A DNA stretch of 64,000 nt. Origin: Micractinium sp. NFX-FRZ. Lineage: Eukaryota > Chlorophyta > Trebouxiophyceae > Chlorellales > Chlorellaceae. The stretch lies in NCBI GenBank assembly GCA_029339195.1, contig JAPTJF010000008.1, positions 124,001 through 188,000 of the forward strand, given 5' to 3'. Below are positions 4,771-63,829 of this stretch, one piece after another (position 1 is the stretch's first letter; the number at the start of each line of letters is the position of its first letter). The translations under genes were made by a program, and so were the position numbers. The notes under the pieces were generated by a model. That model had not been told where the DNA came from. It did not search any database and was given only the letters and a program-made list of their open reading frames with translations.

Positions 4771-4818
<48 letters not shown>

Positions 4819-10448: not shown

Positions 10449-13400
10449 ATGCAAGGAGGGCCAGGCATGCCGCCCAGGCCGCCATTGACGCGCTATGGAG
10501 GCCTCGATCCAGTGGCAGCGCCATACCACAGAGGCGGTCCAGATGCGGGGCCGTCGCCGCCGCCGCCGCTGCCGCCGCTGCCACCCGGGGTGAGCGGAGA
10601 AGTTGCCCTGCTGCAATGTTTTGCGCTGGTGCGACCGCGTCTGCGCATGCTTTGCAACACTGGTTGGTGTGAAACCCGCCCATCTGTCCGCTGCCTATGT
10701 GCCATTTGGCTGCTGCTGCCAGTACACGTGCTGCTGTGCCACCGACGCGCTGCCGCCCCTTGGCACGCCACGCCGCTGCCGCTGCTGCCCCGTTCTCTCC
10801 CTCCCTGCCCTGGCAGGGCCAACCAGTAGCGCTGGCCTATCAAGAGCCCAAGAAGCGGCCAGCACCCCTCAAAGGCAATGCTTGGAAGGTGTGCCTGCCG
10901 AGAGCCAGCCAACTGCCTGCGTGCGGTGCTGAGAGGGGCCCCTGGCTGGCTGGACAGTCGTTGAATACCAGTGGCAGCGCCCCGCCATCACCCAACTGCC
11001 GTGTCTGCCCTGACACGGGCCGTCCTCACTACTCCCAGTATCGGGCACTGCTGCCTGTCCTGCTCACCTGCTTCCGCTCTCACCAAGCGTTCCTTCCCCC
11101 CTCCCTTCCCATCTCTGCATCCCTGCCGCCCGTGCCTCAGGTGTGGCTGGTGCTGGGCGATTGCACGCTCATAGGGCTGGCGCCGGTGCTGGTTCAAGCG
11201 GCCAAGGACTCTGGCGGGCACTACGCCTTCAGCCCGGTATCAGTCAACCTACTAGTAGAGTTAGCCAAGACGCTGTTTGCGCTGGGCACGCTCATAGCCT
11301 ACGTGGGTGCTGCCCCGCGCTGTGCATGGCGTGCTGTACTGTGCTGTGCTGGGATGTGCACGGGGTGCTATGCTGGCAAAGGCAGCCTTGCTGCTGTTTG
11401 TGTTGGCCAAGATGTGGGGCTCAGCCCTGAGAGTTCTGTGCTGCGCTTTGTGCCGTAGCGTGCTGTGTCGTGATGTCAAGTGGCATGCTGTGATGTGACT
11501 GCTGTCATCTGCTGTGGGCACATGCCCTGAATCTTGCTTCAAAGGGAACCGCACTCCAGGCAGCTACGCCTGCACCTGTGCTGAGCTGGCGCTGCCGCGC
11601 TTGCCTTTCCGCTGCTGCAGGGCACGGGGCGGCCGGGGCCGCCCATGTACCGCAGCTGGCGCGCGTTCCTGCGGGACGCGCACCACAACCGGCTGCTGGT
11701 CATCCCCGCGGCACTCTACGCGGTGAGGGCGCGCCGAGGCAGGGACCTGGGGGACGGTAGCAGCAGCGCGGCTGCGCTCAAGAGACAGAGACGGCGATGT
11801 GCAGCCACCTAGCGCGTTGACCCAAAGACTGAAGAAAGGATACTTTTGACACAATACCAAATGCACGCTCTGCGCTGCCCCTCCATGGGAGAACCACCAC
11901 CTCCCGTATTCACCTCTCCCCCCAGACAACAAGCCTCAACCTTGCAACTGCGTGTGCAACTGTGCGCCCCCTGGTGCAGGTCAACAACTACCTCAAGTTT
12001 GCCATGCAGCTGTTCTTCAAGCCCACCACTGCCAAGATGCTGGGCAACCTCAAGGTGGGGGGCGGCTGGGGTGGGGGAGGGAGGCAGGGTAGCAGGGCGC
12101 AGGGTGGGGTGGGGGGCGGTGCAGGGGAGGGGTACCCTAGATGCAGGGCGGCTATGGGATGGGGGTGGTTAAGAGGGGAAGGGAGGCAGGGCAGCAATGC
12201 CTAGGGTGAAACGGGGTGAGCTGGGGGACGGAGCAAGGTAGGGGCAGCCTAGTCGTCGGAGCTCCTGCACTCCGCCCCACACCCAACCGTCCTGCCTCTC
12301 CACCTCGGCAGGTGCTGGTGATTGCAGTGCTCATACCTTTGTCACACGCCACTCCCTTCATCCCACCCTGGTTGGTGATCATCTGCCGCTCCCACACTTC
12401 TCGTTCCTGCCACCCTGCAGATCCTGGTGATATTGCAGTGCCTGCTGGATGCGCCCCCCGCTCCATCAGTCCAATCTACTGATCGGGTCTGTATCGCAAG
12501 TTTCATTGCGGAGAAACGGACTGTAAACACAACCAAGCAAGATCATCTGTCACCCCCACGCCCCTCCCCCATGCCACCCTGCAGATCCTGGTGATTGCCG
12601 TGCTCATGCGCTTTGTGATGCGCCGCTCCTTCAACATCTATCAGTGGGAGGCACTCTTCTTGCTGGTGGCAGGCATCACAGGTGGGCCTCCCCCTGCTGG
12701 GCGCTGTTCATTGCTGGCTGATTTCATGTGTGTTTCTGGTGAGGTGAGGTGGGCGGGCGGGTGGGCACAGGCCGAGGTGCACTGCTTGCCAATTGTGGCC
12801 ACTATCTGTGGGAAGGAAGGGGAGGGAGTATCTGGTGCTCCTGTTGGGGATGGGTGGAAAAGTGGAGTGCCATGCTGCATGCGACGGGTGGATGCCCTGG
12901 TTGCCAGGTGCAGCTCGCTTATCAATTCGCGCCTGTGTGACACACGTGCCATTCCTGTGCCCTTCCCCCACTCGCATGGGACTGCAACTCGCACATGTGC
13001 CCCTCCCTTCCTGGCCGCTGCAGTCAACCAGCTCAACTACTGCAGCAAGGGGGCGGGGGGCGACGTCTTTGCCCCGGCAGCCATCATGTACACGCTAGGT
13101 GGGGGCTGTTGCGCATGCTGTGCACGTACCCGGCGTGCTTCCCAGCAAGCCTGGGGTTGGGTGCTGTGCTGTGCTGTACGGTGTACACTAGCTTTGTCAG
13201 ACCAAGTGTGGAGCAAGAGCACAGGCCGGATGGGCAAAGGGCGGCGACCGCTTTCAACCTGCCGCCCGTACACGCCGCCCCCGCTCTGCACTTCCCGGCG
13301 TGTTACACCGGCTGTTCTTTCCCACTCCTTCTGCTATGCACATATGATGTCATCTGATTCCCTTCCCCGCAGGCAGCATCATCGCCCTCTCCCTGGGCAG

Positions 13401-15193
13401 CTTACACACCGACTGTTCTTCTCACTCACTCTGCTATGCACATGTTATGTCATCTGATGCCCTTCCCCGCAGGCAGCATCACCATCCCCTCCCTGGCCAG
13501 CGTTTACAACGAGTTTGCGCTGAAGAAGCACATGGACACCAGCGTGCTGCTGCAGGTGCGGGGCGCCATTGCATTACTCTCTGGGATGTGCGGTTTCAGC
13601 TGGTGTGGGGCTGGCTTGCGCTGAAGAAGCACATGGACACTAGCATGCTTGCTGCTGCAGGTGCAGCGCACGGCTTACTTGCTGTTGTGTGTGTGTGTGG
13701 TGCACGGGCTGCTTCTATGCGTGGAAGACGCACTTTAGACACCAGCGTGCTGCTGCAGGTGCGGCTGTCAAGGCCTGGGCAGCGGGGCGGGGGGACCCAG
13801 AGATTGCTGCTGCTTCAGAAGCAGATGTAGAAGAATATACATCTGCAGGCCCTCAGCTCGTTTGTGATGGCTCCACTTTCTGTCCACACTCTGCCTGCCG
13901 GCCCGCCCCTCCTCCCCCGCCCTTACCGCCCTCACCCCCACCACTACCCCCCACCCCCCATGCAGAACTTCTTCCTCTACTTCTTCGGCCTGTGCTTCAA
14001 CGCCATGGGCCTGCTGTTTGTGATGGCGGTGGACAGCACCATGCGCCCCTCCACCATGCTGCACGGCTTCAGAGGGGTGAGGCGGGGCGTGGCGGGGTGG
14101 GCGGGGGGCAAGGGGGCTGGTGCTGGCAGCAAGCGCACGTCCACACCAATCGTCCACCTGTCCCGTTCCTTAGGGTGTCCCTTCCGCTTTGTCCGCCTTG
14201 TTGCCTCCTCCAAAACCCAAACCGGCCAGCTCACCCGCCATTTGGTGGCATTCAGCGCGCTGCGCGGCATCCCGCCCTCCTTCTCCATGATACAAAGCGC
14301 CTCCCATCCTGCTGCCCTCCTGCCCTGCCCGCCAGTCACCCGCCTTCTCATGGCAAACAGTGCGCTGCAAGACACATGCTCCTTCCTCCCAACTCGAAAC
14401 ACCTCCCCCGCTGCTCCCCTCCTTCCCTGCCTTGCCAGGTCACCTGCCTGCTGGTGGTGAACAACGCGATGCAGGGCATCCTGTCCTCCTTCTTCTTCAA
14501 GTACGCCGACTCCATCCTCAAGAAGCAGAGCTCCACCATCGCTACAATCTTCACCGGTGGGTGTGTGGGAACGCCCCCATCAAGCGGTGCCATTGCTTGC
14601 ACGCTACCTGCCATCGTGAGCACCTCTCCGGCTGCACCTGCCGGCCCACCTCCTCCCCGCCCGCCCTCCCCCGCTCTGCGCCGCGCCGCAGGCCTGATGA
14701 GCGCATTCCTGTTTGGCCACACCCTCACGCTTAACTTTGCCATCGGCGTCTCCATCGTGTTCATATCCATGTGAGTCTGCCAGGCCAGGCGGTGCTGTGC
14801 TGGTTTGAGTCTGCCTTTCTTTTGTGTTTGGGGGTTGACAGCACTGGTGATTGGGGCACTCAGTGGTGCATCGAGTGCGCATTCCGTGTTGGAGCCTGCA
14901 ACGTGCCTTTGGTACGTCCTTTGCTGTTTTCCCCATGCGATTACACACCACCCGCCTGCATGCCACTTGCTGGCTGGTGCTGCCTCGCTGAGGGATGTGC
15001 CGGCTCCTGGCTGGCTGGCGAGCCTGGTGGCTGGCAGGGTCCCCCATGCCTGCTGGGTGCGCTGTGCTCCTGGTGCTGACACATGGGCGCCTGCTCTCTG
15101 CCCTCCCCTGCTGCCCTTCCTGCAGGCATCTCTTCTTCTCTATGGGTGAGTGCTCACTGTCTTTTAGCATGCAGGCATGCAGCGGCAGCGGCG

Positions 15194-15224
<31 letters not shown>

Positions 15225-17375: not shown

Positions 17376-20300
17376 ATGAAAGTGGGGCTCCCAGAGGCGA
17401 ACATCCCCCACCCCGCAGCAACAGCACAGCTGGCAGGTTCGGCGGAAGACGGTGCAAGCGGCAGCATGACTGCAGCCAGCCCCGCGCAGCCCGAGAACCC
17501 CGCGGGCGAGTCGGCACCGGCGGTGCCTGCCACACTGCAGCCCAATGCACCGCAGCTGTCTGAGCAGCAGGCAGCAGCAGCGGCGCAGCAGCAGCAGCAG
17601 CAGCAGCAGCAAATAGCAGGGGCAGGAGCCCCGCCCCCTCTGCCGCTCCCGCAGAATGGCAGCAAGCAGCCGCTCCTAACGCTGCCGCCGCAAGGTGGGT
17701 GCCGCCTCTGCCTGCCCGCCTGCCGCATGTCGCTACGCTGGGGAGCGGGGGCAGCCAGGGGTTGAGGGCCGTGGGGCTGCTGCTGCACATGTGCGCATGC
17801 ACGGTAGCTGGGCGATGGGACTGCCACTGCCGTTGCTGGCGCTGGCACAGCGGCGGCGGCATGCGCTTGGGGCGCAGTGGCAAGGGTGCAGCGTGCCGCT
17901 GTGCCTCCTGCCTGTAGTGCCTGCCGAATGGCAGCAGGATCCACCAGACCTCTGCTCCCGCGGTCAATCTCCCTAACACTACCTGCATATTGTGCAATGC
18001 TCTCGTGGGGCCGCCGCCGCGCGCCCACCTGCGTGCCGCACTCACCCCCGCTGCCCTGTCCATCGCTCTTTGCAGGCCCCAGCGGCCTGCCCGCCGGCGT
18101 GGTGGGCGTGGACAGCGCTGCCTCGGTGCTGCTGGGCAACTCTCCAGAGACCGGCCTCATCGCCGTCTCCTCCTCCGCCTCCCTCGCCTCCTCCGCCGCC
18201 GCCGGCGCGCCCAGCAGCAGCGTGGGCGGGGGCAGCGCCGAGAACAACAAGACCCTTTACCTGGGAAACCTGCACCCATTTGTCACAGAGGCCACGCTGC
18301 AGGAGGTCTTTGCCGGGCTGGGAGGAATCACGGAGCTCAAGGTGCGCTGCGCTGCGCTGTGCTGCTGGTACAGCTTATGTGAGGGCCGGGGCTGGGCGGG
18401 GGCTGCGGGAATCCCTGCGGGCGGCGTGCTGTGCCTGCTGTGCCTGCCACGACCTGTGGCACGAGCGCTGGGTGGGAACGCTGGTGGGGAGCACACTGAG
18501 AAGTCAGGGACAGAGGCAGCGAGTCGCAGCGCCCCTCTGCCTCATTCCTCCTTTCTTCCCTGCCCTCCTCCCGCCCGCCCGCCTGGTGCCAGGTCATCAA
18601 GGACAAGGCCACCGGCGTGTCTGCTGGCTATGGCTTTGCCAAGTTCTCTGGTGAGTGCTTCTCTCTTATAAATGCTTGCACATGAATGTGTGTCTGTGTG
18701 TGTGTGTGTGTCCTTGAGTCGTGTCTCCCGACTTCATGTGTGAGCCGTCCCCTTCCATCCGCCGGCCTGCGCTGCCGCCCCCAGTTCATGCGCTCTGCCA
18801 TGCTTGCGCCTCGCGTCTCGTGGCCGCCTGCCCTGCCGCGCTGCCCGCACCCTCCGCCCGCCGCGCCACCACGCCGCTGCTGCCCGCACGCAACACGCCC
18901 ATGCCCGCCCCCCTCCGCCTCCCTGCAAGCTCCTCGCTCCCCCACCTTTGCCCCGCTGGCCGCCTCCTGCCCCCGTTCTTCACTGCCCCACCCTTTCCCT
19001 CTGCCTCTGCCTGGCTGCGTCCCGCCCGCCTGCCCGCAGACGGCGTGAGTGCGCAGGCGGCCCTGGACAAGGTTGCCAAGACGGTGCTGTTTGGCCAGGA
19101 GGCGCGCATCAACTGGGCCTTCCAGAAGGAGCAGAAGGAGGAGGTGGCCAACCACTTCCACGTCTTTGTGGGCGATCTGAGCTCAGGTGGGTGGGGGCAT
19201 CAAGGGTTAGCGGCATGGCTTCCTTTTGGGGGTGGGTGCTGTGGTTGTGTGGGCACGGAAGGAGGAGGCGCCCAACCACTGTCACGTCTGTGTGGGGGGC
19301 CTGAGCTCAGGCAAGGCTTATTTTTAGTTCAGGTGTGAAGGCTGGGGAATTGCTAGGTTTGGACGCCGGCTGTTGGGCAGATGGGGGTGGCAAACCACTT
19401 CCACTTCCTTGTGGGCGATCTGAGCTCAGGCAAGCTCGCACATTATGTTCATTGTTGCACCACGCCCTTCTGTTTGTTGTGCTTGTGTGTGGCGGGTTGG
19501 AAGCAGCCAGGTGGAAGCACGCGACCGACCGTGCACTGCCCTGGTTGTGCGGCACGCCGTGCTGCTGCTGCCCGCCTTCCTGCACGCCCAACTCTCACTG
19601 CACCACCATGTGCAGGAGCAGCATACCATTCCCTCCACCCACTCATCCTAACCACCACCGCCGCACCCCCGCACCCTGCAGACGTGACGGATGCGATGCT
19701 GCACGCGGCCTTTGTAAACTGCCCCGGGTGCAGCGACGCGCGGGTGATGTGGGACCACGCCACCGGCCGCTCCCGGGGGTATGGCTTTGTGTCCTTCCGG
19801 CAGCGGGAGGAGGCGGAGGCGGCGATCCAGGTGAGAGCACTGGGTTGCAAATTGGGCAGCGGCTGGAGAAGGGGTGGGGAAGGGGCGGGGTGCAGGAGGG
19901 CAGCAGGGGCAGCAGGCTCGGGTCGTGAGGATGAGGAGAGAGGCGGCGGATGGTGTGCCACGCGCCGTGTGTGCATTCGCGCTGGGCCGGGCTTGGGCTG
20001 GCTGGCGTGCCGGCGCCCGGCCCCCAAGCAAGCAAACATGTCTCAACCTGTGTTGCTGCCCGCGCCTTGGCCGCAGATGATGCACGGCCAATTCATCGGC
20101 GCGCGGCGCGTGCGCTGCGGCTGGGCGCAGCACAAGACCGACGGCATTGTGGCCATGGACCCTCAGGTGGGTGGGAAGCTGGGGAGGCACAGACGCCGGC
20201 AGTTAGATACAGTTGGGAGAGTTTGCTTGTGCAAGTAGGTCACCCACATCGAGCGTGGCGCACATCGACACCCTCTCAATGCCTCCTCAAGCACAGCCCG

Positions 20301-26990: not shown

Positions 26991-28891
26991 TCAGGCCTGC
27001 AGCATCGGGTCGAGAGCGAGCGCCTGCGCCAGCATGTACAGCACCCCGAGCAGCACCCAGGTCAGCACCACACCGAAAATCCAGTCCAGTTCCAGCAGCA
27101 GGGCGCCCAGCCAGGGCTGCCAGCCCCGCTCAGGCGGCAGCCCGCAGCGCCGCCGCTCCTCCGCATGCCGCAGGAACAGCCGCGTCTCCACCACCGTCGC
27201 CACCAGAGCAGGGCCCGCCAGCCCCAGGGTGAGCTGGAGGTAGGTCAGGATGACGTGGCACTCTTGGGCCGCCGTCAGGGGGCTGGGCAGGGGCGGGGTG
27301 AGGGAGCCGAATTGGAGGGCGCGCAGGGCGCGCGCCACGGCACGGGTGGCCTGCTCTGCTGCGGGGCCGTCGGCCAGCGCGGGGGTGGCGCAGGCAATGT
27401 GGTTGGTGCGAATGAACTGGGAGACCATGAGCAGGTGGACGGGCAGGGCCCACCTGCGGGCCAGGCAGGGAGGAGGAGGGGAAGGAATGGATGTGAGCGG
27501 GCACCATGCGCTGGTGCCAGCACGTGGAACGGGGCAGGCAGGCAGGCAGCACACCAGGGCACAACACCTTCCCACCCCCCGGGGCCCCCCCTCCCCTGCA
27601 CGCCCGCACCTCAAGCGCTGGCACTGCCCCCACAGCACGCAGTTCGTGAGGAAGCGGGAGCCGAGGGCCAGCAGGGTGGCGTGGCGCGCCAGGCCCAGGG
27701 GGCCGGGGGGGCCGGGGCCAAACCGATCAAACACCACCTCCACCACCCGAGAGTGGCTCATGCATATGTCTGAGAGGGCCTGCACACAAGGTGGGATGAA
27801 TGTTTATTTTAGTGAGTGGAGTTTAGTGAGTGCCTCATGCATATGTCGGGGAGGGCCTGCACACAGGGTGGGATGAATGTTTAGGAGGGGATGAAAGGGA
27901 GGGAAGAACGTTGGCAAACAGGGGCAGGGGCCGTGCAGGGCGCGCAGGGAAGGCGTGAGGGGACGATGCAGGGGAGATGCTGGAGCGCTTGATACCAGGG
28001 TGCGCACCAACCAGCAGCACCCGCCTGGCATCCCCTCAACTCGCCAGGGGTGGCAGCACGGGCCTGGCGCAACGTCACCCACCACCCCAACCACCACCCC
28101 ACCCGGCACCCAAGTCACCAGGAGGGGCAGCACGAGCTGGCGCCAGCGCGCGCGGCTGCCGCCGTCGGGGCGCCCCCGGCAGGCGCGCGCCCATGCGATG
28201 TCGAAAATGTTGACGCAGGCGGTGCAGCGCAGCGCGACCGACAGCGCGGTGTGGCCGGGGGGGAGGCGCAGCACAATGGCTGCGACGATGCCCTGCAGGC
28301 GTGGGCACGGTGAGAAGCGGGATGAGCGGGGGGCGGGTGGGGGGAACAAGTTGTGTGATGTGTATGTGTGTATGTGTGTGCGTGTGTCTGCAGTGCTACA
28401 ATTGAGGTGCTGTTGCGTCTGTTTTCGGTTGTAGTGCTGGTGCTCATTTGGTGCCCACGAGGGCGGGGGGCGCAAGGGTGGGGAGAGTGAGCCGGGGGCC
28501 TGGCCCCTGCTAATCACTCTGCGGCGACTGCCGCCTGCACCCACCTTGCAAAGGGGACCTGCACATGCATACATGCATGCCCTAGGCTGCCCTCGCAAAG
28601 CGCTCCATCAAGGAAAGGCCATCAACCGCTCACACGCCCAAGGCTCAGTCCACTCGATCAACTCAAGACACCCGCTCTGTCCCTCACCAGGCACATCCAG
28701 CTGGCCAGGCTGGAGGCTGCAGCAAAGGTCAGGTTGAACCGCGTGGAGAATGGGAGGCAGGGGGAGCCCAGCAGGTGAAGGGAGTCTGGGGTGCCACGTG
28801 GGGAGCCTTCAAGGGGCGGGGACGCGGCGGCCGGCGGCAGTGGCAGCGGGACCGCGGCGCCGCCGGCTGCCCCTGGCGGCGGCCCGGGCAT
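26991..28891 (-). CDS. Unrecognised multi-pass membrane protein
   Basis: I do not recognise this protein. Four exons, 28688-28891, 28119-28292, 27610-27779 and 26991-27453, join in one frame to 336 aa. The start is the first in-frame ATG (28891); an in-frame TAG lies near 28980 upstream. After a Pro/Gly-rich N-terminus there are about six hydrophobic segments: around LTFAAASSLASWMCL, GIVAAIVLRLPPGHTAL, ALRCTACVNIF, LALGSRFLTNCVLW, VILTYLQLTLGLAGPALVATVV and the strongly hydrophobic end LDWIFGVVLTWVLLGVLYML. There is a His/Arg-containing loop (LFLRHAEERRRCGL) between the last two. It resembles the many lineage-specific polytopic proteins of chlorellalean algae. No transporter signature is visible. 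The consistent phase of all junctions argues that it is a real gene. Confidence 0.65.
27832..27882 (-). repeat. Decayed copy of exon 3 acceptor region inside intron 2 of the membrane-protein gene
   Basis: The segment 27760-27810 (cyclic word ctcatgcatatgtctgag then gggcctgcacac) is repeated almost exactly at 27832-27882. The copy nearer the gene end contains the true acceptor of exon 3; the other lies in the intron. Confidence 0.85.
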
Positions 28892-29656
28892 CGGCTGCGT
28901 ACCGCGCCCCCGAGGTCGCGAACGTAGTGCCGCTTCGGCGCGGCCGTTGCAAGGGCAGGCCAAAACCGCCGAGGCGGCCTACTGAAAGCCTGAGCCCGCT
29001 GCGCACTCCTGCCCGCCTCCTGTGCGGCCTTGAGCTCGATTGCGATGTATGAGGGCCAAGCGCACGTGAATTGACTTCCCACTGTGCATCCGAAGGGGCT
29101 TTGTGACAAGTTGTATCCACAAGGCCACCCCACATGTACAAGGCTCTGCGGCCATGCCAGAGCAGGTGCGCAGGTGCACCACCCATGCTTTCAACTGTGT
29201 TGGGGACGGTGTGGTCTTTCCACCAAGGTACATGGACAGCCAGATGAGCCGGGCCTTGGGACACACAAGGATGGCGTGTACCAGCGCCCGCCCACTGCCG
29301 CTGCCCCACTGCCGTTGCTCTGTACCTGAAGCCCGCCACCAGGCAGGCATTCTTGCCGGCTGCATTAAAGTCACGAGCAGAGTACGGGAAGAGAAGCAGG
29401 CCGGCATGCATAGGTCGCCAGGGGGGAGGGGGGTCCGGGGAGCGCGCACAACGCTCACTCTCAAAGCCTTCCAAACACGGTGCAAAGGAAACCAGTGAGA
29501 TGACCACGCCACGCCGGTCTTGCCCAGCAGGCGGCTCCGGCGGGCAGGCACCATCATCACCAAGGGCTGAAGGCGGAGGAGCGAGTTCAGAGCAGTTTGC
29601 CTGGGGGGAGGGGCGATCAATTCGGGGTCGCCCGGGCGTGCAGCGGTGGTGTGGCA
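28892..29656. other. Intergenic: membrane-protein promoter and SOUL gene 3' UTR
   Basis: Both flanking genes point left. A 213-codon open frame crosses this interval on the - strand but has no recognisable domain and no splice support, so I leave it out. No TGTAA motif was found for the SOUL gene here. Confidence 0.4.
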
Positions 29657-50633: not shown

Positions 50634-53600
50634 ATGCAACACAACGTTCAGGACCCTCGTCTGGCCGCTGGCCGCGGCGAAGAATATAGAATCGAAGCTA
50701 TTAGGCAGCGTGAAGCGGAGGAGCTCGAGCTGCAGCGCTTAGACGACGGCGACTTTCGGTGCGCGGGCGGGCGGGCGGGCGGCAGCGGGCGTGTGGCGGG
50801 CCGGCCACGTGCAGCTGCTTTCGTAAAGCAGTATCTGCATGCCTGCCAGAGCGCAGCTACTTGTCGAATGAAAAATGCAAGTCTTTCCGCCTGCCGGCCT
50901 GCTGCATGGCGGTGCACCCAGCTGCCGCCCACCGCCTGCGGCCCACCGCCTGCGGCCACTCTTGTCCGCCTTCCACACAGGCTGCCTGCATACGGGTCCA
51001 CTTCAAAAATGTAGCCCTGGATGAGATGAAAGGTGCCTGCTTTGCACCAGCCCGCATCAAACTCTTCCTATTCCCCCGCCCGCCCCCACCCCACGTGCAG
51101 GCTGCCCCTCCAGCGGTTCATCGAGGAGAATGTGGACCTGGATGAAACTGAGTGCGCCAGCATCGACACAGCCATCCCCCCCAGCAACGTGGGCTACCAG
51201 CTGCTGCAGAAGCTGGGGTGGCGCCCTGGCGGCGGGCTGGGCCGCGAGCAGCAGGGTGAGTGCCTTGTCGCTCCCCATGTGCAGCCAGAGTGTGGTGCGC
51301 GTGCGCAAAGCAGGCAGGCCAGGGTGCGGGCAGCAGGGTGGGTGTGCCTGTGGTGGGGCGAGCAGGCAGGCAATGTCCAGCCCCGAAGGATAGCAGAGGC
51401 CGTGCTGCCTGGAGGCGGCTGCCTGCCGGGAGGCAGTTCTGCCACAGCCGCTCTTTCCATCCCGCCTGCTTCTGCCGGCAAGCCTGCCAGGCTGCCCCCC
51501 ACCCTGCCCTGCCCCCAGCGGCAGTGCACTGCCGGCTGCCATGAGCCCAAGAACGCTGAAAGGTTGCAGAATATGTGTGCATCTTCTGTTGATTTGATGT
51601 GTGATGTGTTCCACCTGCTGTGCCACTCCTGCAGGCATCTGCGAGCCTGTGAGGCTGGATGCAAATGACACTGGCACACGCATCGGCGTGGGGCGCGCGC
51701 AGGTAGGGCCGGGCGGGGCTGGGGGCGGCCATGCAGGCGGGGCGTGGGCGTGGTCCCAGGGACATGTGGAATGGCATGATGCCGCCCCACGCGATCACAT
51801 CACTCCCACCTGCCTTTGTGCTTTCCCTGCCGCCCCTGCCTTATTCACTCCTTCCCCCACGCTCACGCCTCGGCTGAAGCAATGCACTGCGACAGACAAC
51901 GTGTAGAGGCAGGCGCTGGAGGTGGAAATGTATGCTCACCTCCCTGCCCCGCTTGCCTCTTCCACTTCCCCACCTGCCAGGTGGAGAGGCAGTACACGGC
52001 AGCAAAGGCATTGGAGCGCGCCCTGAGTTCCGAGGCGTGCCAGTATGTCGACCCACTAGGAAGTGGCCCCACCTCCTCCTCACCGCCGTACCGCGCACTG
52101 CTTCCCCGTGCCCGCCCGCCTCCCGCAGGTGGAGAGGCAGTACACGGCGGCGGAAAACGTGGAGCGGCGGGCGCTAGAGGTGGAGATCCAAGCAGACGAA
52201 GACGAGGAGCGCAAGCGGAAGCGGGAGGTCAGCACCGCCAGCTTGAGCAGGCCAGACGGCAGCAGTGCCAGGGGCAGCAGCAGCAGCGGCAGCTGGGGCT
52301 GCAATGACCTCAGCCGCGGCGGCGGCAGCAGCCGCACCGCCGCCGCGCGTGCAGCGTGACGCGTCGTCCGGTCGGCTGCTTGCCACCCAGGCAGCAGCGG
52401 CCGCAGCTACTGCACGCTCCCCAGGGCCCATGCTCTTGGGGCTAGGAGCACGGCCGGCCTCGCCCAGCTGGCAGGCAGCCCTGGCCCGCCCAGGCCCCCT
52501 CCCGGTCCCCCGCCGCCGGCCCCTGTCTACCGTTCCGCCGCCCCTGTGCCGCTTCCTGGCTGCAGTTGGAGGCTGAGCGGCAGCAGAAGATACGGGAGGA
52601 AGTCAAGCACGAGCTGCGCGTGTTCTACTGCGAGGTGTGCGCATGCTTTCGTGCGAGGTGTGGGGCACGCATGTGTGTGCTTGGTCGGTAAAGATGTTTG
52701 TGGGTGGGGGGGCCGGAGGAGGGCGCATGGCTGGTGGGGCACGAGGCAAGGCTGCCCCTGTTTTGCTGCAAGGTGGGGCGCAAAGACGGGGGCCTGGGGT
52801 GCCTCTCTCAAGTGTGCCGCTTGTGCCTCTTGTTCCAGGACCGGAACGGGAGTGTTGGCGGTGCATGTGCACAGCGGGAAGTGTTTAATTTGGTTCCTCA
52901 TTCTGATTCGTCTATTGGTCCTCTTGTTTTCTTTCTGATGCTGGTGACTCGTCCTTCCCCCGTGACAGGTGTGCCGCAAGCAGTACCAGTTTGCCCACGA
53001 AATGGAGGAGCACCTGTCCTCCTACGACCACCACCACCGCAAGCGGCTGGCAGAGACGCGCGCCATGCTCAGCGAGCGCAGGTGGGGCCCCTGGTGCACA
53101 ACGGGCGGAGCTTGGTTTGGTGAGTTTGTGGGGCAGGGGTGGGGGCGGATTATTATGGCACACCGCAGCAGCAAGGGCAGGGCGGGGCGGGCGGAGAGTA
53201 CGTTGCCAGTTTTGCGGGTCCGGGGCGGGGAAGGGGAGTGCAGTGCAGCAGCGAGCGCAGGCGGGGCCCTCATGGGGACCAGCCGTCCGTAGGTTGCGCC
53301 AGCTGGCATGATGTGCGTGGCATACGTGCCCCGGGCGGGTCTGGCAAAGACCCGCTGCCGACTGCTTGCTGCCGACTGCTTGCAACCATGTCACCTGGCC
53401 CTGCTCTGCGCAGCCAGCCGCAGGACTGCAGCAAGCGCACATGGTCACGTGCTTGGAGCCCACATCAACTGTTGCCACATCAACAAACGTTTTTGTGTTG
53501 TGTGCAGCCGCAAGGACCGCAGCAAGAAGGAGAAGAAGGCGGCAGAGAGGGAGGCTGCACGCATGGCAGCGCAGTGAGCGGGGTGCTGCGTATGCTGCAT

Positions 53601-54944: not shown

Positions 54945-54949
54945 TGTAA
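54945..54949 (+). terminator. TGTAA polyadenylation signal of the G-patch gene
   Basis: TGTAA lies 111 bp past the stop codon, the expected distance for a green-algal transcript. Confidence 0.6.
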
Positions 54950-56004: not shown

Positions 56005-59000
56005 ATGACAAAGCCCGTTGTTCGGCGGGGCGGGGCGGCAAGACCCCTCTCAGTCACGCAGCTCCTGCTCGACTTGAGCTTGGCCCGACTTTTGCTCACT
56101 GTGCTGGGCACCTTTCTGAGGCCCTTCCAGGTCTCCTTCCGCTGGTGCGCATGGGCCTGGAGCTTGGCGGTGGCCCTCCGCCGCTTGGTGCTGCGAGCCG
56201 TGGGCTACTTCGCGGCGCCGCCACGCAGCCCAACACTGCGGCAGCTGGGACGCGGCGTGCTGGAAGTGCGGCGGTGGCATTTAGCGGCAGGTGAGGCGGC
56301 GGGCAAGCGGCGGGCGGCGGGCAGGGTGGTCCCATGGGCGGCGGGTTGGCGGCCGCGACGAGGGGAGCGCGCTTGCTTTCCGCACCAAGTTCCACAGGAA
56401 TCTCATTCTTACGAGCAGCCCTCCAGGACCGGGCGACATTGCATTCGCAGGCTGGCGGCACCCCGCCCTGTGCCGTAGAGAACTCAGCCCGCCCACGTGC
56501 GCCGCCTCGCCGCCACGCCACGCCCGCCTTTCCGTGCACCCACCCTGCCCTGCACCCGTGCTGTGCTGTGCTGTGCTGTGCAGCGAGCATCGTGGTGGCC
56601 TCGGCGCTGTCCTCGGCGGCGCGCTACGCTCGCGAGCTCAAGGATGAGGCGGTGCAGCAGAAGCGGCGGCTGCTGGCCAAGATGGCCAATAGCAGGTGTT
56701 TGGTGGGGGGGGTGTTGGGGGCAAGATTCCAAGTGTTGAGTACCAGAGACTGCTACCAACTGCTTCCATTAGCAACCATTCACCATTCCACCGCTCTTCT
56801 GGGTGGGTGTGAGCCATTGCCTATGTTGTGTTGTCACTTGCCTCCTCCACAGCTCCTGTTTTGAGTGGGCATCACCGCCGCCACCTCGTCCATCGTTATA
56901 GCTTTTGCTTGCTTTCCTGAAATCTCCCCAATTGCAGGACCTGCTTTGGGTGGGGCCACTCCACCCACACCGCCACCTCGCCCCGTCGTTATAGCGTCTG
57001 TCTGTTCTGTTTATGACTCCCCCCCCGCAGGTCCTACTTTGAGTGGGGCATCCACGCCGCCAAGCTGGACGCCCTCGAGGGGGTGGACCAGGCGGAGCGC
57101 TGGCGCGCCGAGACGCGCCTGTACGACCGCAAGCTGCTGCGGTGAGCGGCGGGCTCAGCGCTGAGCACTGCACTGTATCCAGGAGCTTCCCAGGCAGGGC
57201 TGAAAGCCCACCTGCGCAAGGTGCCCAGTCCTTCCACAACTTGAAACGCCTCTGGCCCCACACCGTCCCCACCTCACCCACCCCACCTCTCCTTTCACCC
57301 CACCTCTCCTCCCGCAGCGAGAAGGTGGCCCACCTGCGCAAGGTGCGGGAGGGCGGCAGCATGGCGGACCAAATGTTTGCGCTGCGCGCCGACCTGCTGC
57401 GCAACCTGGGCAACATCACAAACAGGTGGGCGAGGGCAATGCAGCAGTGTAGTGGGCAGCACATCGCATTTACAGGGTAGCACGCTTTGCCGATCAGCCT
57501 GGGCAGCATCACAAACAGGTGGGCGAGGGATGAGAGAGTGCAACATTGGGGCTGGGTGGGCTGGGATAGTGAAACAATGGGGCAGGCAGTGGGCAGCACA
57601 CTGCATCGTTACAGGGTAACATGCTTTGCCGATCAGCCTGGGCAGCATCATACGCAGGGCATGCGTGCAGGCAAGGGCGGTGTGGGCAAACCTGGGATGC
57701 AGCGATGCTGTGGGGAAAGAGGCGTGCGGTTGCCTGGTCTGGGCGCAGCACCCAACACTCTTCTCAGTGTGTCTGTGCCTGTTCCACGGCACAAACCGGC
57801 CCCTACGGCCCCTGTCCCCTCGCCCCCCCTCCCCACACCGCCGGCGGCCCCTCTCCCCACCGCATCTCCCCTGCCCCGCAGCGCGCTGCACGAGCACTTC
57901 CCGGTGATCCCGGAGCCGATTCGTGAGTACATTGAGGAGGTGAAGACGCAGCTGGAGGAGGTGACCAGCTCGCCAGGTAGGCGGGCGCCAGGCGGGCATG
58001 AGGGCGGCCAGGCAAGGCGCCAGGCGGAGGTCCAGGCTGGCGGGGCAGGCGGCCCCGCCTGAGCCGTCAAGGGCACACCGCTCCTGTGTCAGCCACCACA
58101 GTCTATTTCTGTGGGCGCCAGGCGGGCGAGGGGCGTGGGCTCTTGAAGGGGTCTCAGGGGTTTGGAGTCTCGAAGGGAGCCAGCCTGCATAACCCAGACA
58201 GTATCATCATCGTCGTCGTTTCTTATGATGCTTGCCACTCCCCCTGCTGTGTGTGGCGCAGACCTGCCGCTGGAGGAGAAGGCGGCCTTCCTGAAGGAGA
58301 CGCGGCACGCCTTTGGGCGCACGGCGCTGGTGCTGAGGTGAGGCTATGCGCGGCGGGGTGGGGCCGGCGTCGGGCTGGGCGTGCCGCCCTGGAACATCTG
58401 TGCGCTGTGTGTGTGGGGAGCGGCGGATGCTGGCAGGCGTGCGTGCGCTCCTTCCCGCTCTGTGATTCCCAGACGTCCCACCAGTCTCCGTGCGCCCTGA
58501 TCCCGGCCGGCTCTTGGCGTCCGCTTGGTGGTGTGTGTGCAGTGGCTCCCTGGGTCCCCCCCCTGACCACCCGCTTGCTGCCCTTTTCCTGCCAACAACC
58601 CACACCCCTGCCTCCCCCGGCCGCCTGCTCTTCCCTCCCCCCCTCCCTCCCTGCGCAGCGGCGGCGGCTCCCTGGCCGCCTTCCACCTGGGCGTGGTCAA
58701 GGCGCTGCTGGAGCACCAGATGCTGCCGCGCGTGCTGGCCGGCAGCAGCGTCGGCTCTATGGGTGCGCGGGTGGGGCCTGTGCTGTGCCTGTGCCGGCTG
58801 TGTTCACTTGCGGGTGCCGGTTGCCACGACTGGGGGGGTGCCACGGCGAGGGTGCAACAATCTTTGCATGTCCAACGCACCTCTCCTTGTTGCAAAGTTG
58901 CCTATCTGGTCCTCGGCGTGCCGAACCTGCAGTATGCGCGCTGGTGGCGACGCGCACCGACAGCGAGCTGTCGAGCATGCTGAGCGGCGCCAGCCTGGAG

Positions 59001-62000
59001 GGCATGGACCTCTCCTTCTTCTCATCGGCCACCGCACCCCAGCTGGTGGCGCACCTGCTGGCGCAGGTGGGCTAGGGCGAGTGGGCTGGCGGGTGGGCGG
59101 GGCGCTGGCAGGCGCTGGGTTGGTGGGGGCGGCTTGGGCTGGGGCGCTGGCGAGTTCTGGTGCAGCCGGTGCTTGCGCTGCTTCCGCCCCCCAGCTGATG
59201 GCGGCACCTGCTGGCACTGGCAAACAGGTTGCGGGCCTGCGGAGGTGCCATTGGGCAGAGGGCTGAGGGCTGCGGTGCTGTGGCTCGGGGCGCTGACATG
59301 TTGGGCCCCTCTGCTGGATCCCAGGCTCTCAATCCAAGCCACCACTCCCAAGCACCGCTCCTCCCACTGTCGTAACTGTCAATTCTCCCGCCCCACCCCC
59401 TGCAGGGCGCCCCCGCCGACCAGGATGTGGTGGTCAAGCGCCTGCGCCACCTGCTGGGCGACCTGACCTTCATGGAGGCCTTCCAGCACACGGGTGGGCG
59501 GGTGAAGGAGGGGTTCTTCTTTGTGTCTTCTTTGTGTGCTCTTCTTTGTGTGTTCTTTGTGTGTTCTTTGTGTGTTCTTCTTTGTGTGTTGTTTGTGTCT
59601 TCTTTGTGTGCTCTGCATGTCCCGTGGCGTCTCCTTTGTGTCTGCCCCCTCTTGTGGAGGCCCCCTCCGGCACACGGGTGGGTGGGGAGGAGGGAAGGGG
59701 TGATGGTATTGGTGTGGCCGTATCTTGGCGGTGTCGGCGCGGCAGCATCTTCCCCCCAGCCCCTGCACCCCTCTGCCCTGTTTCCCACCCCTCCCTTCCA
59801 CCCCCACCCCCGCCCCCTCCGCTGCTCAGGCCGCGTGCTCAACATCTCGGTCACCGCCGACGACTCGCATGAGCCACCCCGCCTGCTCAACTACCTCACA
59901 GGTGCGCCAGCCGGGCGGGCCCACACACGCATTGTTATCATCCTTCTGTTGGCATCATTTTCTACCGCGCAATGTGGGGGCGGCTGCTGGCGCAACGCTG
60001 TGTTGTGCAGCGTGAGGCGGCGCGGCGGTGCTGCACCCGCACGGTACTGCCCCACCTGCCTGCTTGCTCGAGCGCCTCACAAGCGGTTGCCGGTGGGCAT
60101 GCCGGAGGTGAAGCGGACTGTGCTGCTGCACAAGGCCCCCGCCGCATCGCACGTGATCCTCTGGAGCGCCGTGGCGTGCAGCACCGCCTGCCCCACCCGC
60201 CTCCCCTCATCTCCCAACCCCCCACCATCGTTCCACCCACCACGTATCTGTATTTGGCCCCTCTTGCCCCTGCAGCGCCCCACGTCGTCATCTGGAGCGC
60301 AGTGGCATGCAGCACCGCCTTCCCCGGCGCAACAGAGGCGCAGGAGCTGCTGGCACGCAATGCAGCGGGCACCCTGGTCAAGTGAGTGTTTCGTGCGTAT
60401 GTGTATGCGTTTGTGTCCTCTCCCTAGAAATATGTTTTTTGTTTGTCTGCTTTCCTCTGCTTTCCTCTCCCTCGACCCCCCTTGTTGCGGCTGTCCCCGT
60501 TGTGGAGCTGCTGCCACATGGCGGCTGCGGCCTATGTTGACCAGCCGGCAGGCTTGATCTGCTGGCACAATGGCGCCGACCCCGCCGGCTGCCCACATGT
60601 TGCGCCCTCCCCCCCTTTTTGTGTGCCAGTGCCTGCGCCTGGCCCGCTGCGCTGTGCGCCAGCCTCATCTGTCACCATCTGCCGCCCAACCCTGCCCCAC
60701 CCCGCCCTTGCCCACTGGCGCAGGTTTAGCAGCGAGGCGGCGGGCGGCGGCGCCGAGAGCTGCTGCCCGGGCGGCGGGGGCGGCGGGCACGCCAACAAGC
60801 CTGTGCGGCACTGGCGCAGCGGAGGGATGGAGCAGGACCTGTCGATGCGGGGCCTCAGGTGGCTGGGGGGGCTGGTTGTTCAGCTGGCAGGCTGTGCAGC
60901 TGGTGGAGCGGGGTGGGGCGGGGGCGGAACAGGGCCTTCAGTTTCGCGGCCTCAGGCAACCACCTGGCTGCCTGAAGCGCCTGATTGTGACCCCCCAGGC
61001 GTTGGAGGGGGGTGGCCAGGCATGCCTTGCTGGCTGGCTGGGCAGTCGGGCGTTGCACAGTGTGGCATTGTGGAGAGAGGGCGGGGTTGAGGATGCGCGC
61101 AATGCCACGACCCGACCCTCATATATCTCACCTGCACTGCTGCTCCCACCCCCCTCCCCCTCCCTCGCCCCCACCCACCCCCGCAGCGAGATGTTTTCGG
61201 TCAATCACTTTATCGTGAGCCAAACCCACCCCAAGATCGTGCCCCTCCTCAACCTGAAGCGCCGCCTGGGCACGGCCGGCGCGGTGGCGGAGACGGAGCT
61301 CAAGCACAGGTGCGGGCTGGCGGCGTTGCGTGTTGTGCTTGATTGAAAAGGTTTCAGTTCCAAGCTGGGACAGGTGGGTGGGCCTCATGCGCGGTGGCAG
61401 AGGCAGTGCAGCTGAAGCACAGGTGCCGGTTGGTGCCCTTCGGTGCCGAGCATGCCAATTCAAGTCACACAAGGGGATTGCCCCCCGGTGGCCCCCGACC
61501 TGCAAGGCGTTTTGTGTCTCCCACAGGCTGACCCCCTGGCTCCCTCAAACCCCATCACACCCTCGCCCGCTCCCCCTCCTGCCCCCGCCCCCCCGGCCCG
61601 CCCCGCAGGTGCCGGCAGCTGCAGGAGGTGATGCCCTCCTGGCTGCCCTCCCGCTGGCTGCGCGTGTTCTGCCAGCAGTGGGAGGGTGACGTGACCATCG
61701 TGCTGCCCGACACGCTGCGCCAGCTGTACAAGTCGATTGTGCACCCCAGCAACGCGGGTGGGTGGGAGGGTTGGTGCCGCGGTGCATGCGCCTGTGTGTG
61801 GTGGGCATGGTGGGAGGCCCTCTGCCAGCTGTACAGGGCAAGGGTGCGCCCCGGCAACGCGGGCGGGTGCCCAGTATTAGTGTGTGCCTCTTTGTGGGGC
61901 ATGCAAGGTGAGAACCGGCAGGCAGGCGCAGCGGCCTTTCCATGCCCTCCCATCTCCGCCGCCCCCCTCGTGCGCCTACTCAGCCCCTCCTCCGGCGCCT

Positions 62001-63829
62001 GCCTGCCCCCTCCCCACACCTGCTGGCCGCTAGTGTACAGCCGACGTGCTGCAGCCTTCCTCACCCCGCCCCTGCTCCGCATCTCCAACCCCCGCTTGCC
62101 CCCCCACCCCACCCCACCCCACCCCGCAGACCTGCTGGCCGCTGTGCGCCAGGGCGAGCTGTGCACGTGGGCCAAGCTGAGCGCCATCCACTGCAACTGC
62201 GGCATTGAGGCCACGCTGGACGCGTGCATCCAGCAGGTGAGGTTCGATTCTGCACACGAGGTGTGGGGCACAGTTGGGGCAGGGCACAGTGCGGTACATG
62301 ATTGGTCTTCAAATTGCTGGGCGCGTGCATCCAGCAGGTGCGGTGAGTTGTGCTCACAGAGGTCTGGGGCACAGCGGGGCACATGGTTCGTCTTCAAGGG
62401 GCGCTGGATGCGTGCACTCAACGCACACGACGCGTGGGGTGAAGTGGGGCCGCCACGCAGAGCTTTGCTCTTCTGTTTCTGCCCCTTGATGCGGCTCTTA
62501 ACGCCCACCTCCCATCTCCCCCCGGCAGGTGTCCACCTGGGAGCGGCAGGAGCGGCGCAAAGCGGCTCTAGAGAACCCGCACCCCCCCACACACATACAC
62601 ACGCCCACCAACTGCCCCACCCTCTCACTCTCCCATCCTTCTCCCCCTCCCCCCGCAGGTGTCCACCTGGGAGCGTCAGGAGCGGCGCAAGGCTGCCAGC
62701 ACGCTGCTGCCCATGAAGAGCCGCATCCCCTCGTGGATGCACCTCCCCTCGGCCACCTCCGGCAACTTTGGCGGCGCCTCCATGCGGGGCAGCCCCAGCC
62801 AGGACTCGTTGGCAGGGTGAGCGGGGGGCGGGGGCGGCGGTGGGGGCCAGAGTGTGTGTGGTGTATGCTGTGTGGGGTATGCGCCGACGGATGTCCGTCG
62901 CGCGCCTGCCCTCCCTGCCAGTCACTCGTCTGCACCCCACACACCTGTTTCCCCGGCGACTAAGGTGCTGGATCCCTGGTGCAGGTTTGAGAACGACGGG
63001 GTGTGCATGGATGACGACCACCTGCCCTTCTACCCAAACCACGTGATCTTACATTACCGCCCCTTGTGTGCAGGTTTGAGAACGACGGTGTGTACATGGA
63101 TGACGACCACCTGCCGCTGCCCGAGGAGCGCGCTGTGGGCGCCTACAAGGTGCGCGCTGCCTTTGCTCAGTGCTTGAACACGGGGGGTGACGGTGTGGGT
63201 GCTGCCGTGTTGTGCTTGAACACGGGAGGTCACAGGGTGGGCGCTGCGCTTGCTTAGGACTTCAAAATCATGGGGGCCTGCAAGGTGGTGCTGCCATTGG
63301 TGCTTGTGCATGGCATGTGGTGGGGCACGATGGAAGGCACTGCGGGCAGGCATGGGTGAGGGAGGGGGGTGGGGGTGGGGGTCGAGGAAAGACAGATGGG
63401 AGGAGGTGCGTCGCGCAAAAGTGCGATGCACCTGCTCGCCTGCCCACCTGCTCCCGCCTGTTCCCCCTTCCTGGCACCCATCCGCCGCCGGTCTGCCTGC
63501 CTGCCTGCCCGCCGACGCGCCTGGCTGGCTGGATCCTCATCAAGTCACCCCCATCTGCACCCCATCAAGGCACCACCACCACACACCTGCTGTGCGTTCG
63601 CGCCCCGCCCGCACGTCTACCTGCCCGCCGACGCACTTGGCTGCATCAAGTTCTAAGTGTGTTGCCTGTGCTCCACCCGCAGGTCTACTTGCCCGCCGAC
63701 GCATTCGAGTGCATTGATGCCTCTGCCAACCTGTGGGCAGGCGGCGCCAGCCCGGCGGGCGGCGGCGCTGACAAGGCGCGCGCTCGCGGGCACCCCAGCA
63801 CTGACCGACTGGACGTCATTGCGCCCTGA
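56005..63829 (+). CDS. SDP1: SDP1/Tgl3-5-type patatin-like triacylglycerol lipase, catalytic Asp replaced by Ser
   Basis: SDP1 starts oil breakdown by cleaving triacylglycerol on lipid droplets. Eighteen exons (56005-56290, 56584-56695, 57031-57141, 57318-57425, 57882-57976, 58262-58337, 58659-58762, 58933-59066, 59406-59493, 59830-59901, 60276-60381, 60724-60858, 61187-61309, 61609-61757, 62130-62236, 62659-62816, 63074-63149 and 63683-63829) give 728 aa in frame. Exon 1 encodes a hydrophobic N-terminal region, as in SDP1. Family blocks follow: [50 protein letters not shown] (oxyanion hole, about 264-267), [16 protein letters not shown] (nucleophile Ser about 293), [43 protein letters not shown] and [17 protein letters not shown]. 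The conserved WRDG catalytic motif reads WRSG (Ser about 463). The start codon is the least certain part. Many introns carry exon-edge copies. Confidence 0.91.
56840..57000 (+). repeat. Two decayed copies of the exon 3 acceptor region in intron 2 of the lipase gene
   Basis: The real exon 3 start is gtcctactttgagtggggc at 57031. Relatives are at about 56852 (ctcctgttttgagtggg) and 56937 (gacctgctttgggtggggc), each right after CAG. The flanking word cgttatagc also repeats at 56894 and 56989, so each unit is about 90 bp. Confidence 0.85.
57480..57660 (+). repeat. Two copies of exon 4 end inside intron 4 of the lipase gene
   Basis: Exon 4 ends aacatcacaaacag then gtgggcgaggg (to about 57436). 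Copies lie at 57499-57532 (nearly exact, donor intact) and 57639-57660 (decayed). Between them gtgggcagcacactgcat and ttgccgatcagcctgggc also repeat. Confidence 0.9.
59517..59640 (+). repeat. TTTGTGTG-rich minisatellite in intron 9 of the lipase gene
   Basis: About ten units of tctttgtgtgt with small variations, followed near 59668 by cggcacacgggtgggtgggg, a relative of the exon 9 end and donor at 59485-59505. Confidence 0.85.
60135..60195 (+). repeat. Copy of exon 11 start inside intron 10 of the lipase gene
   Basis: Exon 11 opens cgccccacgtcgtcatctgg at 60276. A close relative at 60137-60190 reads cccgccgcatcgcacgtgat and then ctggagcgccgtggcgtgc, about 131 bp upstream. The copy could still encode [13 protein letters not shown]. 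Confidence 0.88.
62310..62425 (+). repeat. Two copies of exon 15 end inside intron 15 of the lipase gene
   Basis: Exon 15 ends gcgtgcatccagcag then gtgag (62222-62240). The word recurs at 62321-62340 with an intact donor and decayed at 62405-62420. The intervening text (gtgtggggcacagttggg and relatives) repeats too. Confidence 0.9.
62525..62575 (+). repeat. Near-perfect copy of exon 16 start with intact acceptor, intron 15 of the lipase gene
   Basis: The text after CAG at 62529 (gtgtccacctgggagcgg) matches the exon 16 start at 62659 almost base for base for about 35 bp. Splicing to the upstream acceptor would shift the frame, because the offset of 130 is not a multiple of three. Confidence 0.93.
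62981..63035 (+). repeat. Near-perfect copy of exon 17 start with intact acceptor, intron 16 of the lipase gene
   Basis: The word gcaggtttgagaacgacgg occurs at 62981 and at 63070; only the second leads into the rest of exon 17. The offset is 89 bp, so use of the first acceptor would shift the frame. Confidence 0.93.
63480..63660 (+). repeat. Two decayed copies of exon 18 start in intron 17 of the lipase gene
   Basis: Exon 18 opens gtctacttgcccgccgacgc at 63683. Relatives are at about 63503 (ctgcctgcccgccgacgcgc) and 63616 (gtctacctgcccgccgacgc). Confidence 0.9.

What the first reader, a model, noticed from the sequence alone, without database searches (positions are those of the whole stretch)
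12300..63710. Exon-edge echoes: introns across many unrelated genes contain decayed tandem copies of the neighbouring exon boundary
In at least nine of twelve genes I see one to four degenerate copies of 30-60 bp spanning an exon end or start, including the splice site, inside the adjoining intron. Clear cases lie in the FANCI, transporter, UBP1-like, membrane-protein, SOUL, CDC50, FAS1, G-patch and lipase genes. Spacing is regular within one intron (about 45, 90, 105, 120 or 150 bp). The copies at different loci share no sequence, so they are not a mobile introner family. They look like successive local tandem duplications of a boundary-containing segment followed by decay, which would lengthen introns and supply decoy splice sites. 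Kinesin-5 has the fewest, so the process is uneven. I know of no standard feature type that names this.
Basis: partly seen in the sequence, partly recalled or inferred. Interest (0 to 1): 0.88.

Follow-up and report, generated by a model that had tools for sequence, protein, structure and literature searches.

The report
Exon-edge copies inside algal introns
In this green alga many introns carry old, damaged copies of the neighbouring exon's end or start, probably left by repeated short local duplications that lengthen introns; the copies are real and far above chance, but how many of them arose is not settled.

Summary
With self-trained gene models over 264 kb around the window, 74 of 482 introns contain a direct copy of the exonic 60 bp at their own splice boundary (score >=28), against 0.7 expected from other genes' introns and none inverted at that score. 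It recurs on another contig (5 of 83) and in a lipase paralog (12 of 16). In the window, 20 of 135 introns and 7 of 12 gene models qualify; CDC50, kinesin and L31 do not. Of 112 pairs, 81 have lags of 70-165 bp; introns with 0, 1 or 2 echoes have medians of 245, 362 and 426 bp. Echoes mutate evenly over codon positions, have weaker splice sites than authentic ones, and mostly carry this lineage's residues (7 of 11). "Tandem duplication, then decay" is only partly supported: the rest of the unit is still homologous in 28 of 76 boundary pairs, but in many others, even above 92% exonic identity, homology stops about 5 nt into the intron, which simulated substitution decay does not give. Heavy block-indel turnover comes near; splice-boundary-anchored copying is not excluded. 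New variant of a known kind.

The parts
1875..2036 (-). FANCI gene: donor-side edge 1981-2036, echo 1875-1931, lag 105, id 0.82
13305..13512 (+). Nucleotide-sugar transporter: acceptor-side edge 13406-13512, echo 13305-13412, lag 101, id 0.84, whole-unit duplication (67 bp intronic)
13515..13764 (+). Transporter: donor edge 13515-13561 with two echoes 13616-13664 and 13718-13764 (lags 101, 202), homology ends 4-6 nt into the intron
14225..14493 (+). Transporter: acceptor edge 14434-14493, echo 14225-14284, lag 209, id 0.75
19134..19430 (+). UBP1-like RRM gene: donor edge 19134-19187 with echoes 19258-19311 (id 0.85) and 19383-19430 (id 0.92), lags 124, 243
27757..27882 (-). Membrane-protein part of merged model: acceptor edge 27757-27805, echo 27834-27882, lag 77, id 0.94
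32282..32464 (-). DUF2358 part of merged model: donor edge 32428-32464, echo 32282-32318, lag 146, id 0.97; spacer 32319-32428 unique in genome, yet the spacer keeps distal homology to the echo's flank (98th null percentile)
32679..32840 (-). DUF2358 part: donor edge 32804-32840 with echo 32679-32715 (lag 125); further copies 32575-33052 (exon models here unreliable)
35840..35944 (+). Fasciclin (FAS1) gene: weak donor-side echo 35921-35944, score 28, at the threshold
51876..52187 (+). G-patch gene: acceptor edge 52127-52187, echoes 51979-52003 (id 0.96, lag 148) and 51876-51929 (id 0.78, lag 258); spacer unique
53070..53526 (+). G-patch gene: donor edge 53070-53090 echo 53249-53269; acceptor edge 53505-53526 echo 53415-53435 (weak; not among the 20 introns)
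57318..57658 (+). Lipase SDP1: repeated LGNITNS exon end; 57498-57518 was called an exon but is an echo (absent in five relatives); further echo 57637-57658
59032..59215 (+). Lipase: donor-side exonic segment 59032-59062 (stops 4 nt short of the boundary), echo 59184-59215, lag 152, id 0.91
60135..60325 (+). Lipase: acceptor edge 60266-60325, echo 60135-60194, lag 131; echo keeps the own residue T387
61279..61433 (+). Lipase: donor edge 61279-61320, echo 61389-61433, lag 110; echo keeps own L492, but differs at T490
61719..61869 (+). Lipase: donor edge 61719-61764, echo 61824-61869, lag 105; at S537 the echo has the relatives' residue A
62215..62381 (+). Lipase: donor edge 62215-62281, echo 62316-62381, lag 101, whole unit (45 bp intronic)
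62526..62696 (+). Lipase: acceptor edge 62656-62696, echo 62526-62566, lag 130, id 0.93
62979..63115 (+). Lipase: acceptor edge 63068-63115, echo 62979-63026, lag 89, id 0.96; flanks unrelated; echo keeps own V639, M641
63602..63714 (+). Lipase: acceptor edge 63670-63714, echo 63602-63646, lag 68; echo keeps own L661, D664, differs at F666

Best explanation
Introns of this Micractinium/Chlorella-like alga grow by recurrent local direct duplication of units of about 70-165 bp. A duplication that spans a splice junction is tolerated, because the outer copy of the splice site stays in place and the mRNA is unchanged; purely exonic ones are mostly purged, and purely intronic ones also occur. Afterwards the inner copy and the intronic part of the unit erode, by substitution and by frequent block insertions and deletions, while the exon and the splice-site core (GTGNG at donors, about CAG or GCAG at acceptors) are held fixed by selection. 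What remains recognisable is therefore an exon-edge 'echo' at about one unit length. Decoy sites in echoes are weaker than the authentic sites, which are slightly stronger than in other introns. Shown: direct local copies, longer introns, even codon-position mismatches, mostly lineage-young residues, weak decoys, homology of the remaining unit in a minority of pairs. Inferred: tandem birth for pairs without flank homology, the high block-indel rate, the selection steps, and replication slippage or repair as the molecular cause.
For: 74 of 482 introns vs 0.7 expected, 0 inverted at score >=28. Intron medians 245/362/426/458 bp for 0/1/2/3 echoes (334/71/17/1 introns; the 0 class excludes introns with intron-internal repeats); length minus lag of one-echo introns (224) does not differ from echo-free introns (p=0.13); within genes +144 bp, n=83. 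Intronic remainder of the unit at or beyond the 95th null percentile in 28 of 76 pairs, 3.8 expected. Whole-unit cases such as 13305-13501. Mismatches even over codon positions: donor .108/.148/.146, acceptor .145/.148/.157. Echo site weaker than authentic in 28 of 43 donors (9 equal, 6 stronger) and 32 of 42 acceptors (3 equal, 7 stronger); authentic sites of echo introns score higher than others (p=0.04, 0.005). Of 11 aligned lipase residues at which the own exon differs from all 4-5 relatives compared, the echo has the own residue at 7, another at 3, the relatives' at 1. Between two diverged paralogs an echo follows its own gene's exon and no such echo was found in the other. Simulated duplication with 0.4-0.7 block indels per substitution gives a similar loss of flank and a drop after +5.
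Against: The block-indel rate needed is high and not measured directly; simulated no-flank shares at exonic identity >=.90 are 44/135 and 45/86, against 45 no-flank, 8 intermediate and 20 flank in all boundary pairs. 15 of the 22 no-flank pairs with exonic identity >=.90 do not reach the 95th percentile anywhere in the spacer. Observed match after +5 (.40 .47 .27) lies below the simulation (.54 .52 .46). Nearly equal lags in several multi-echo introns fit poorly with heavy block turnover. Exonic parts exceed 55 bp in only 3 of 82 boundary pairs, fewer than units with a median lag of 113 bp lead me to expect. The first 5-10 exonic bases are better kept than the next 20, unexplained. One residue of 11 shows the relatives' state. 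No relative genome or RNA-seq was available.
Confidence: 0.55

Rival explanations
1. Templated insertion: a repair or replication fork switches template at a short shared word (GTGNG or GCAG) to the splice site, copies 20-50 bp of exon, and returns, leaving a sharp exon-edge copy in an otherwise unchanged intron.
For: Many high-identity copies end 4-7 nt inside the intron: 29 of 49 boundary copies carry 2-8 intronic bases; match .80-.93 at +1..+5, then about background, in 15 no-flank donors. Aligned length is 0.09-0.64 of the lag in the 20 best edge pairs. Short sharp intron-intron copies exist too.
Against: Introns gain about a lag, not about 35 bp (although length-weighted choice plus 35 bp gives 316-373 and covers 362). 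No inverted copies at score >=28, whereas templated insertions are, from recall, often inverted. Exon-interior copies are fewer (12) than boundary copies (49).
Confidence: 0.2
2. Splice-site- or RNA-anchored copying: the process itself recognises the exon end plus splice core, for example through an RNA template or an R-loop edge.
For: Similar limits at donors (+5) and acceptors (-3/-4; position -4 is not informative, null .74); echo-rich genes differ strongly from echo-poor ones and both lipase paralogs are rich (9/21, 12/16); weak positive correlation of echo share with GC3 (rho .41, p .012).
Against: 28 of 76 pairs keep homology in the rest of the unit; part of the +5 edge is reproduced by simulation; I know of no mechanism that makes such copies in direct orientation only.
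Confidence: 0.1
3. Old duplications whose exonic part is refreshed by gene conversion from the exon.
For: Best exonic identity goes with unrelated flanks; mismatches are clumped (z 1.04, n=78, vs -0.11 to 0.29 simulated); nearer echoes are not always the more similar.
Against: Conversion should also have kept the flanks alike at first; intron-intron pairs are clumped too (z 0.70, n=35); mismatches do not rise toward the boundary end of the block.
Confidence: 0.08
4. Functional decoys, alternative exons or mutually exclusive exons kept by selection.
For: The first exonic bases next to the boundary are better conserved.
Against: Even codon-position mismatches; echo splice sites weaker; GT kept in 19 of 33 and AG in 28 of 40; lags without frame preference (31/39/42 for remainder 0/1/2); no second splice site at the inner end of the few copies that I looked at by eye.
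Confidence: 0.05
5. Chance similarity or assembly artefact.
For: None found.
Against: Null 0.7 against 74 introns; most echoes are several to 25% diverged from their exons, which an assembly duplicate would not be. Reads were not available, so single cases could still be misassembled.
Confidence: 0.01

Closest known systems
Intron gain by tandem genomic duplication of an AGGT-containing exon segment (review PMC3443670, passages read; Hellsten 2011 and Gao & Lynch 2009 known from its reference list and recall, texts not held)
   Same: Local tandem duplication involving exon sequence and splice-site copies, tolerated because splicing removes the extra copy.
   Different: Here existing introns are lengthened; echoes sit inside the intron, not at its far splice site, and AG|..|GT contexts are not enriched.
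Tandem duplication of coding sequence with a proto-splice site in Drosophila (Lehmann 2010, PMC2891723, abstract and outline read)
   Same: Duplicated exonic sequence ends up inside an intron.
   Different: There a novel intron position arises; here I infer that intron positions are old (not tested against relatives' genomes), and the copies are decaying by-products in about 15% of introns.
Tandem exon duplication (e.g. PMC9013439, start of abstract in listing)
   Same: Exon-derived copies in a neighbouring intron.
   Different: Only 12-64 exonic nt and one splice site are copied; no coding constraint seen.
Introners / introner-like elements (recalled; PMC4457414 seen in listing)
   Same: Sequence gain in introns.
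   Different: No shared sequence between loci.

Membership tests
Intron gain by tandem genomic duplication | Copy of the upstream exon end abuts the acceptor, or copy of the downstream exon start abuts the donor | tested here: not met
   2 of 56 donor-side pairs end within 10 bp of the acceptor and 1 of 56 acceptor-side pairs starts within 10 bp of the donor (read)
Intron gain by tandem genomic duplication | AG|intron|GT proto-splice context | tested here: not met
   9/89 echo introns vs 39/393 others, p=1
Introner elements | Many near-identical copies at unrelated loci | tested here: not met
   Cross-intron null 0.7 of 482; 21 spacers match only themselves or the same intron in 264 kb, 2 of 2 unique genome-wide
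Minisatellite / adjacent tandem repeat | Head-to-tail copies filling the period | tested here: not met
   Aligned length over lag: medians 0.30 (donor) and 0.31 (acceptor); a minority such as 13305-13501 does fill it
Tandem exon duplication / mutually exclusive exons | Whole exon with both splice sites, coding constraint | tested here: not met
   Copies of 12-64 exonic nt (search limited to 80 bp of exon), even codon-position mismatches
Local tandem duplication | Whole unit, exonic and intronic part, duplicated | tested here: inconclusive
   28 of 76 pairs with significant homology in the intronic remainder, 48 without; length gain fits a whole unit
Templated insertion | Junctions and an empty site in a relative | not testable with these tools
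   No relative genome held; one scan each of viral and prokaryote contigs with a relative's lipase found none

The most novel reading that the evidence does not exclude
Exon edges together with the 5-nt donor core or 3-4-nt acceptor core are themselves the unit that is copied, by a process that recognises the exon-intron boundary (splice-site-anchored or RNA-linked DNA synthesis), so that spliceosomal signals seed local duplications and introns grow from their own splice sites.
Probability: 0.12. Interest if true: 0.88.

Novelty: new variant of a known kind. Interest (0 to 1): 0.52.

Why it matters
It gives a readable record of how introns lengthen: exons are a frozen reference against which local duplications in the neighbouring intron can be recognised and roughly dated. 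In the 264 kb examined about one intron in six or seven carries such a record, introns with more echoes are longer by about one unit each, and decoy splice sites are born and weakened in numbers. That makes intron growth, cryptic-site evolution and gene-to-gene variation in duplication directly testable in algae with several sequenced relatives. It also warns annotators: echoes look like coding exon ends and can be called as micro-exons.

Tried and rejected
Decay of tandem duplications by substitution and small indels alone: rejected by simulation, kept only with block indels. Chance or composition: rejected. Inverted copies: none at score >=28. Mobile element or captured filler: 21 spacers match only themselves, or copies in the same intron, in 264 kb; two of two unique in the genome. 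AGGT intron gain and a recursive-splicing idea: no enrichment of AG| or |GT. Micro-exon or mutually exclusive exon: no coding constraint seen. Paralogs as dated comparison: g59/g62 are too old except to show that an echo follows its own exon; the zinc-finger-like paralogs have no edge echoes listed. A gene-model-free motif test at copy ends was weak (56 of 87 vs 48.8 expected). Relatives in viral and prokaryote contigs: none (one scan each). Literature: eight searches listed no paper whose title or shown start of abstract describes exon-edge echoes in introns; subscription papers (e.g. the Chlorella NC64A genome, recalled; Gao & Lynch) are not held or were not found, so prior reports may exist.

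Selection effects to bear in mind: pairs need 12 or more exonic bases and score 28; low-complexity sequence was masked (11.5%); the no-flank class is defined by low identity beyond +6 (donor) or -8 (acceptor), which by itself sharpens the apparent edge (seen in the simulation). Rows dropped: boundary profiles used pairs with 18 or more or 16 or more exonic columns and a boundary inside the alignment; one search used 54 pairs with 25 or more exonic bases; one search left uncounted as edge copies 18 intron-intron pairs, 17 with exon called in both copies, 5 'other' and 1 intergenic; one search also found 11 upstream-exon/downstream-exon pairs and 1 within the upstream exon, which were set aside. 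A first hand count of lineage-specific residues (all own-state) was replaced by the script, which also found one residue in the relatives' state.

Full report
Setting. The window is contig C8:124001-188000 of an unnamed 66-Mb, 838-contig assembly, GC about 65%. The lipase gene's best relatives are Micractinium and Chlorella proteins (80, 78, 75, 71 and 74% identity), so I take the genome to be chlorellalean. I read C8:4001-268000 (264 kb; and the window), 40 kb of C1 and 7 kb of C31.

Gene models. A self-trained hidden Markov gene finder converged on 63 genes and 482 introns in 264 kb, median intron about 262 bp, donors mostly GTGNG, acceptors mostly GCAG. The lipase model aligns with five relatives along nearly its whole length; small misfits include a micro-exon (LGSITNS) that is an echo mistaken for an exon, a TCFG insert and a few short stretches. 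The model 26991-33404 is a poor merge.

Is it there? The exonic 60 bp at each splice boundary was compared with its own intron after masking low complexity. At score 28 or more: 39 donor and 40 acceptor hits, 74 of 482 introns (61 at score 32); reverse-complemented introns give 0, introns of other genes 0.7. Independent DNA: 5 of 83 introns on C1 (null 0.10) and 12 of 16 in the C31 lipase paralog (with one gene there no cross-gene null was possible). In the window 20 of 135 introns and 7 of 12 gene models. Heterogeneity among 37 genes exceeds all 5000 permutations; the kinesin and CDC50 genes have none, lipase 9 of 21.

Anatomy. Self-alignment of introns with up to 80 bp of flanking exon gives 56 donor-side, 56 acceptor-side, 84 intron-intron and 11 upstream-exon/downstream-exon pairs, plus 1 within an exon; the 11 include likely micro-exon miscalls and one minisatellite. 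Of the 112 edge pairs, 81 have lags of 70-165 bp. Introns with 0, 1, 2 and 3 echoes have medians of 245, 362, 426 and 458 bp (334, 71, 17 and 1 introns), and one-echo introns minus their lag (224 bp) match echo-free ones. So an event seems to add a whole unit, although a length-weighted insertion of 35 bp would also reach a median of 316-373.

What happened to the copies. Mismatches fall evenly on codon positions: no coding constraint seen in the echo. Echo splice sites are weaker than authentic ones in 28 of 43 donors and 32 of 42 acceptors, and authentic sites of echo introns are somewhat stronger than others, as expected if decoys are harmful. At 11 lipase residues where this species differs from all 4-5 relatives compared, the echo shows the own residue at 7, another at 3 and the relatives' at 1; in a paralog pair an echo follows its own gene's exon and none was found in the other gene. 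Most of these echoes are therefore younger than those divergences, or were refreshed since.

Does tandem duplication with decay suffice? With exon and splice core frozen and the rest mutating, simulation predicts intronic flanks of about 0.80-0.82 identity when the exonic part is at or above 0.92; the 16 observed pairs have 0.55, about the background level (0.52-0.54), and 94% extend 8 bp or less into the intron against 4-7% predicted. Among 73 boundary pairs 20 keep flank homology, 8 are intermediate and 45 keep none, with similar lags. Position by position, 15 no-flank donors match at +1 to +5 (.87 .87 .87 .93 .80) and fall to near background at +6 (.40); 13 no-flank acceptors match to about -3 or -4. 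Counted from sharp ungapped repeats, 29 of 49 boundary copies carry 2-8 intronic bases.

Two findings pull back toward duplication. Searching the whole spacer rather than its first bases finds homology at or beyond the 95th null percentile in 28 of 76 pairs (3.8 expected), including 7 of 22 no-flank pairs with exonic identity at or above 0.90. And when block insertions and deletions of 15-60 bp are added at 0.4-0.7 per substitution, simulated duplications lose their flanks in a third to a half of well-preserved cases, keep distal homology in 19 of 42 and 18 of 43, and show a drop after +5, partly because the class is defined by missing flank. The fit is not complete: the needed turnover is high, the observed drop is sharper, and 15 of 22 well-preserved no-flank pairs have no significant trace of a shared spacer.

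Judgement. The pattern is real and I did not see it described in the titles and abstract starts that my eight searches listed. The best-supported account is recurrent local duplication with rapid erosion of everything that selection does not hold, which makes exon edges the visible residue. It is a variant of known duplication-driven intron evolution rather than a new kind of element. A copying process anchored on splice sites remains open and would be striking; strain comparison would decide.

Noticed in passing
L032 (G000:C31:185501-192500): A paralog of the window's SDP1 lipase has echoes in 12 of 16 introns, including one at 96% over 55 bp; both paralogs are echo-rich, so echo density may be a property of the gene.
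   Followed up: partly
L003, about C8:19980-20353 and C8:23415-23788: Neighbouring paralogous genes share a block of several hundred bp at 100% identity with sharp edges in otherwise about 74% similar sequence, as after recent gene conversion.
   Followed up: no
L004, about C8:33267-33407 (intron 39, gene model 12): An upstream exon end plus intron start resembles the downstream exon start (lag 149, intron 140 bp); possibly an intron born by tandem duplication.
   Followed up: no
62817-63073: The deposited protein of Micractinium sp. CCAP 211/92 (P0002) has a 7-residue insertion just before the exon that carries an acceptor echo here; perhaps use of a decoy acceptor, or misannotation.
   Followed up: no
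30032-30168: CAG-type repeat array; most of the 109 genome matches listed for 26991-41855 fall on it.
   Followed up: no
59515-59614: TCTTCTTTGTG minisatellite in the lipase gene, in the intron after 59493.
   Followed up: no
4773-4816: Run of 44 C.
   Followed up: no
C8 264 kb: Exonic bases 1-10 next to the boundary are less mutated in echoes (0.09-0.12) than bases 10-30 (0.14-0.18), although the splice dinucleotide itself is often lost; unexplained.
   Followed up: partly
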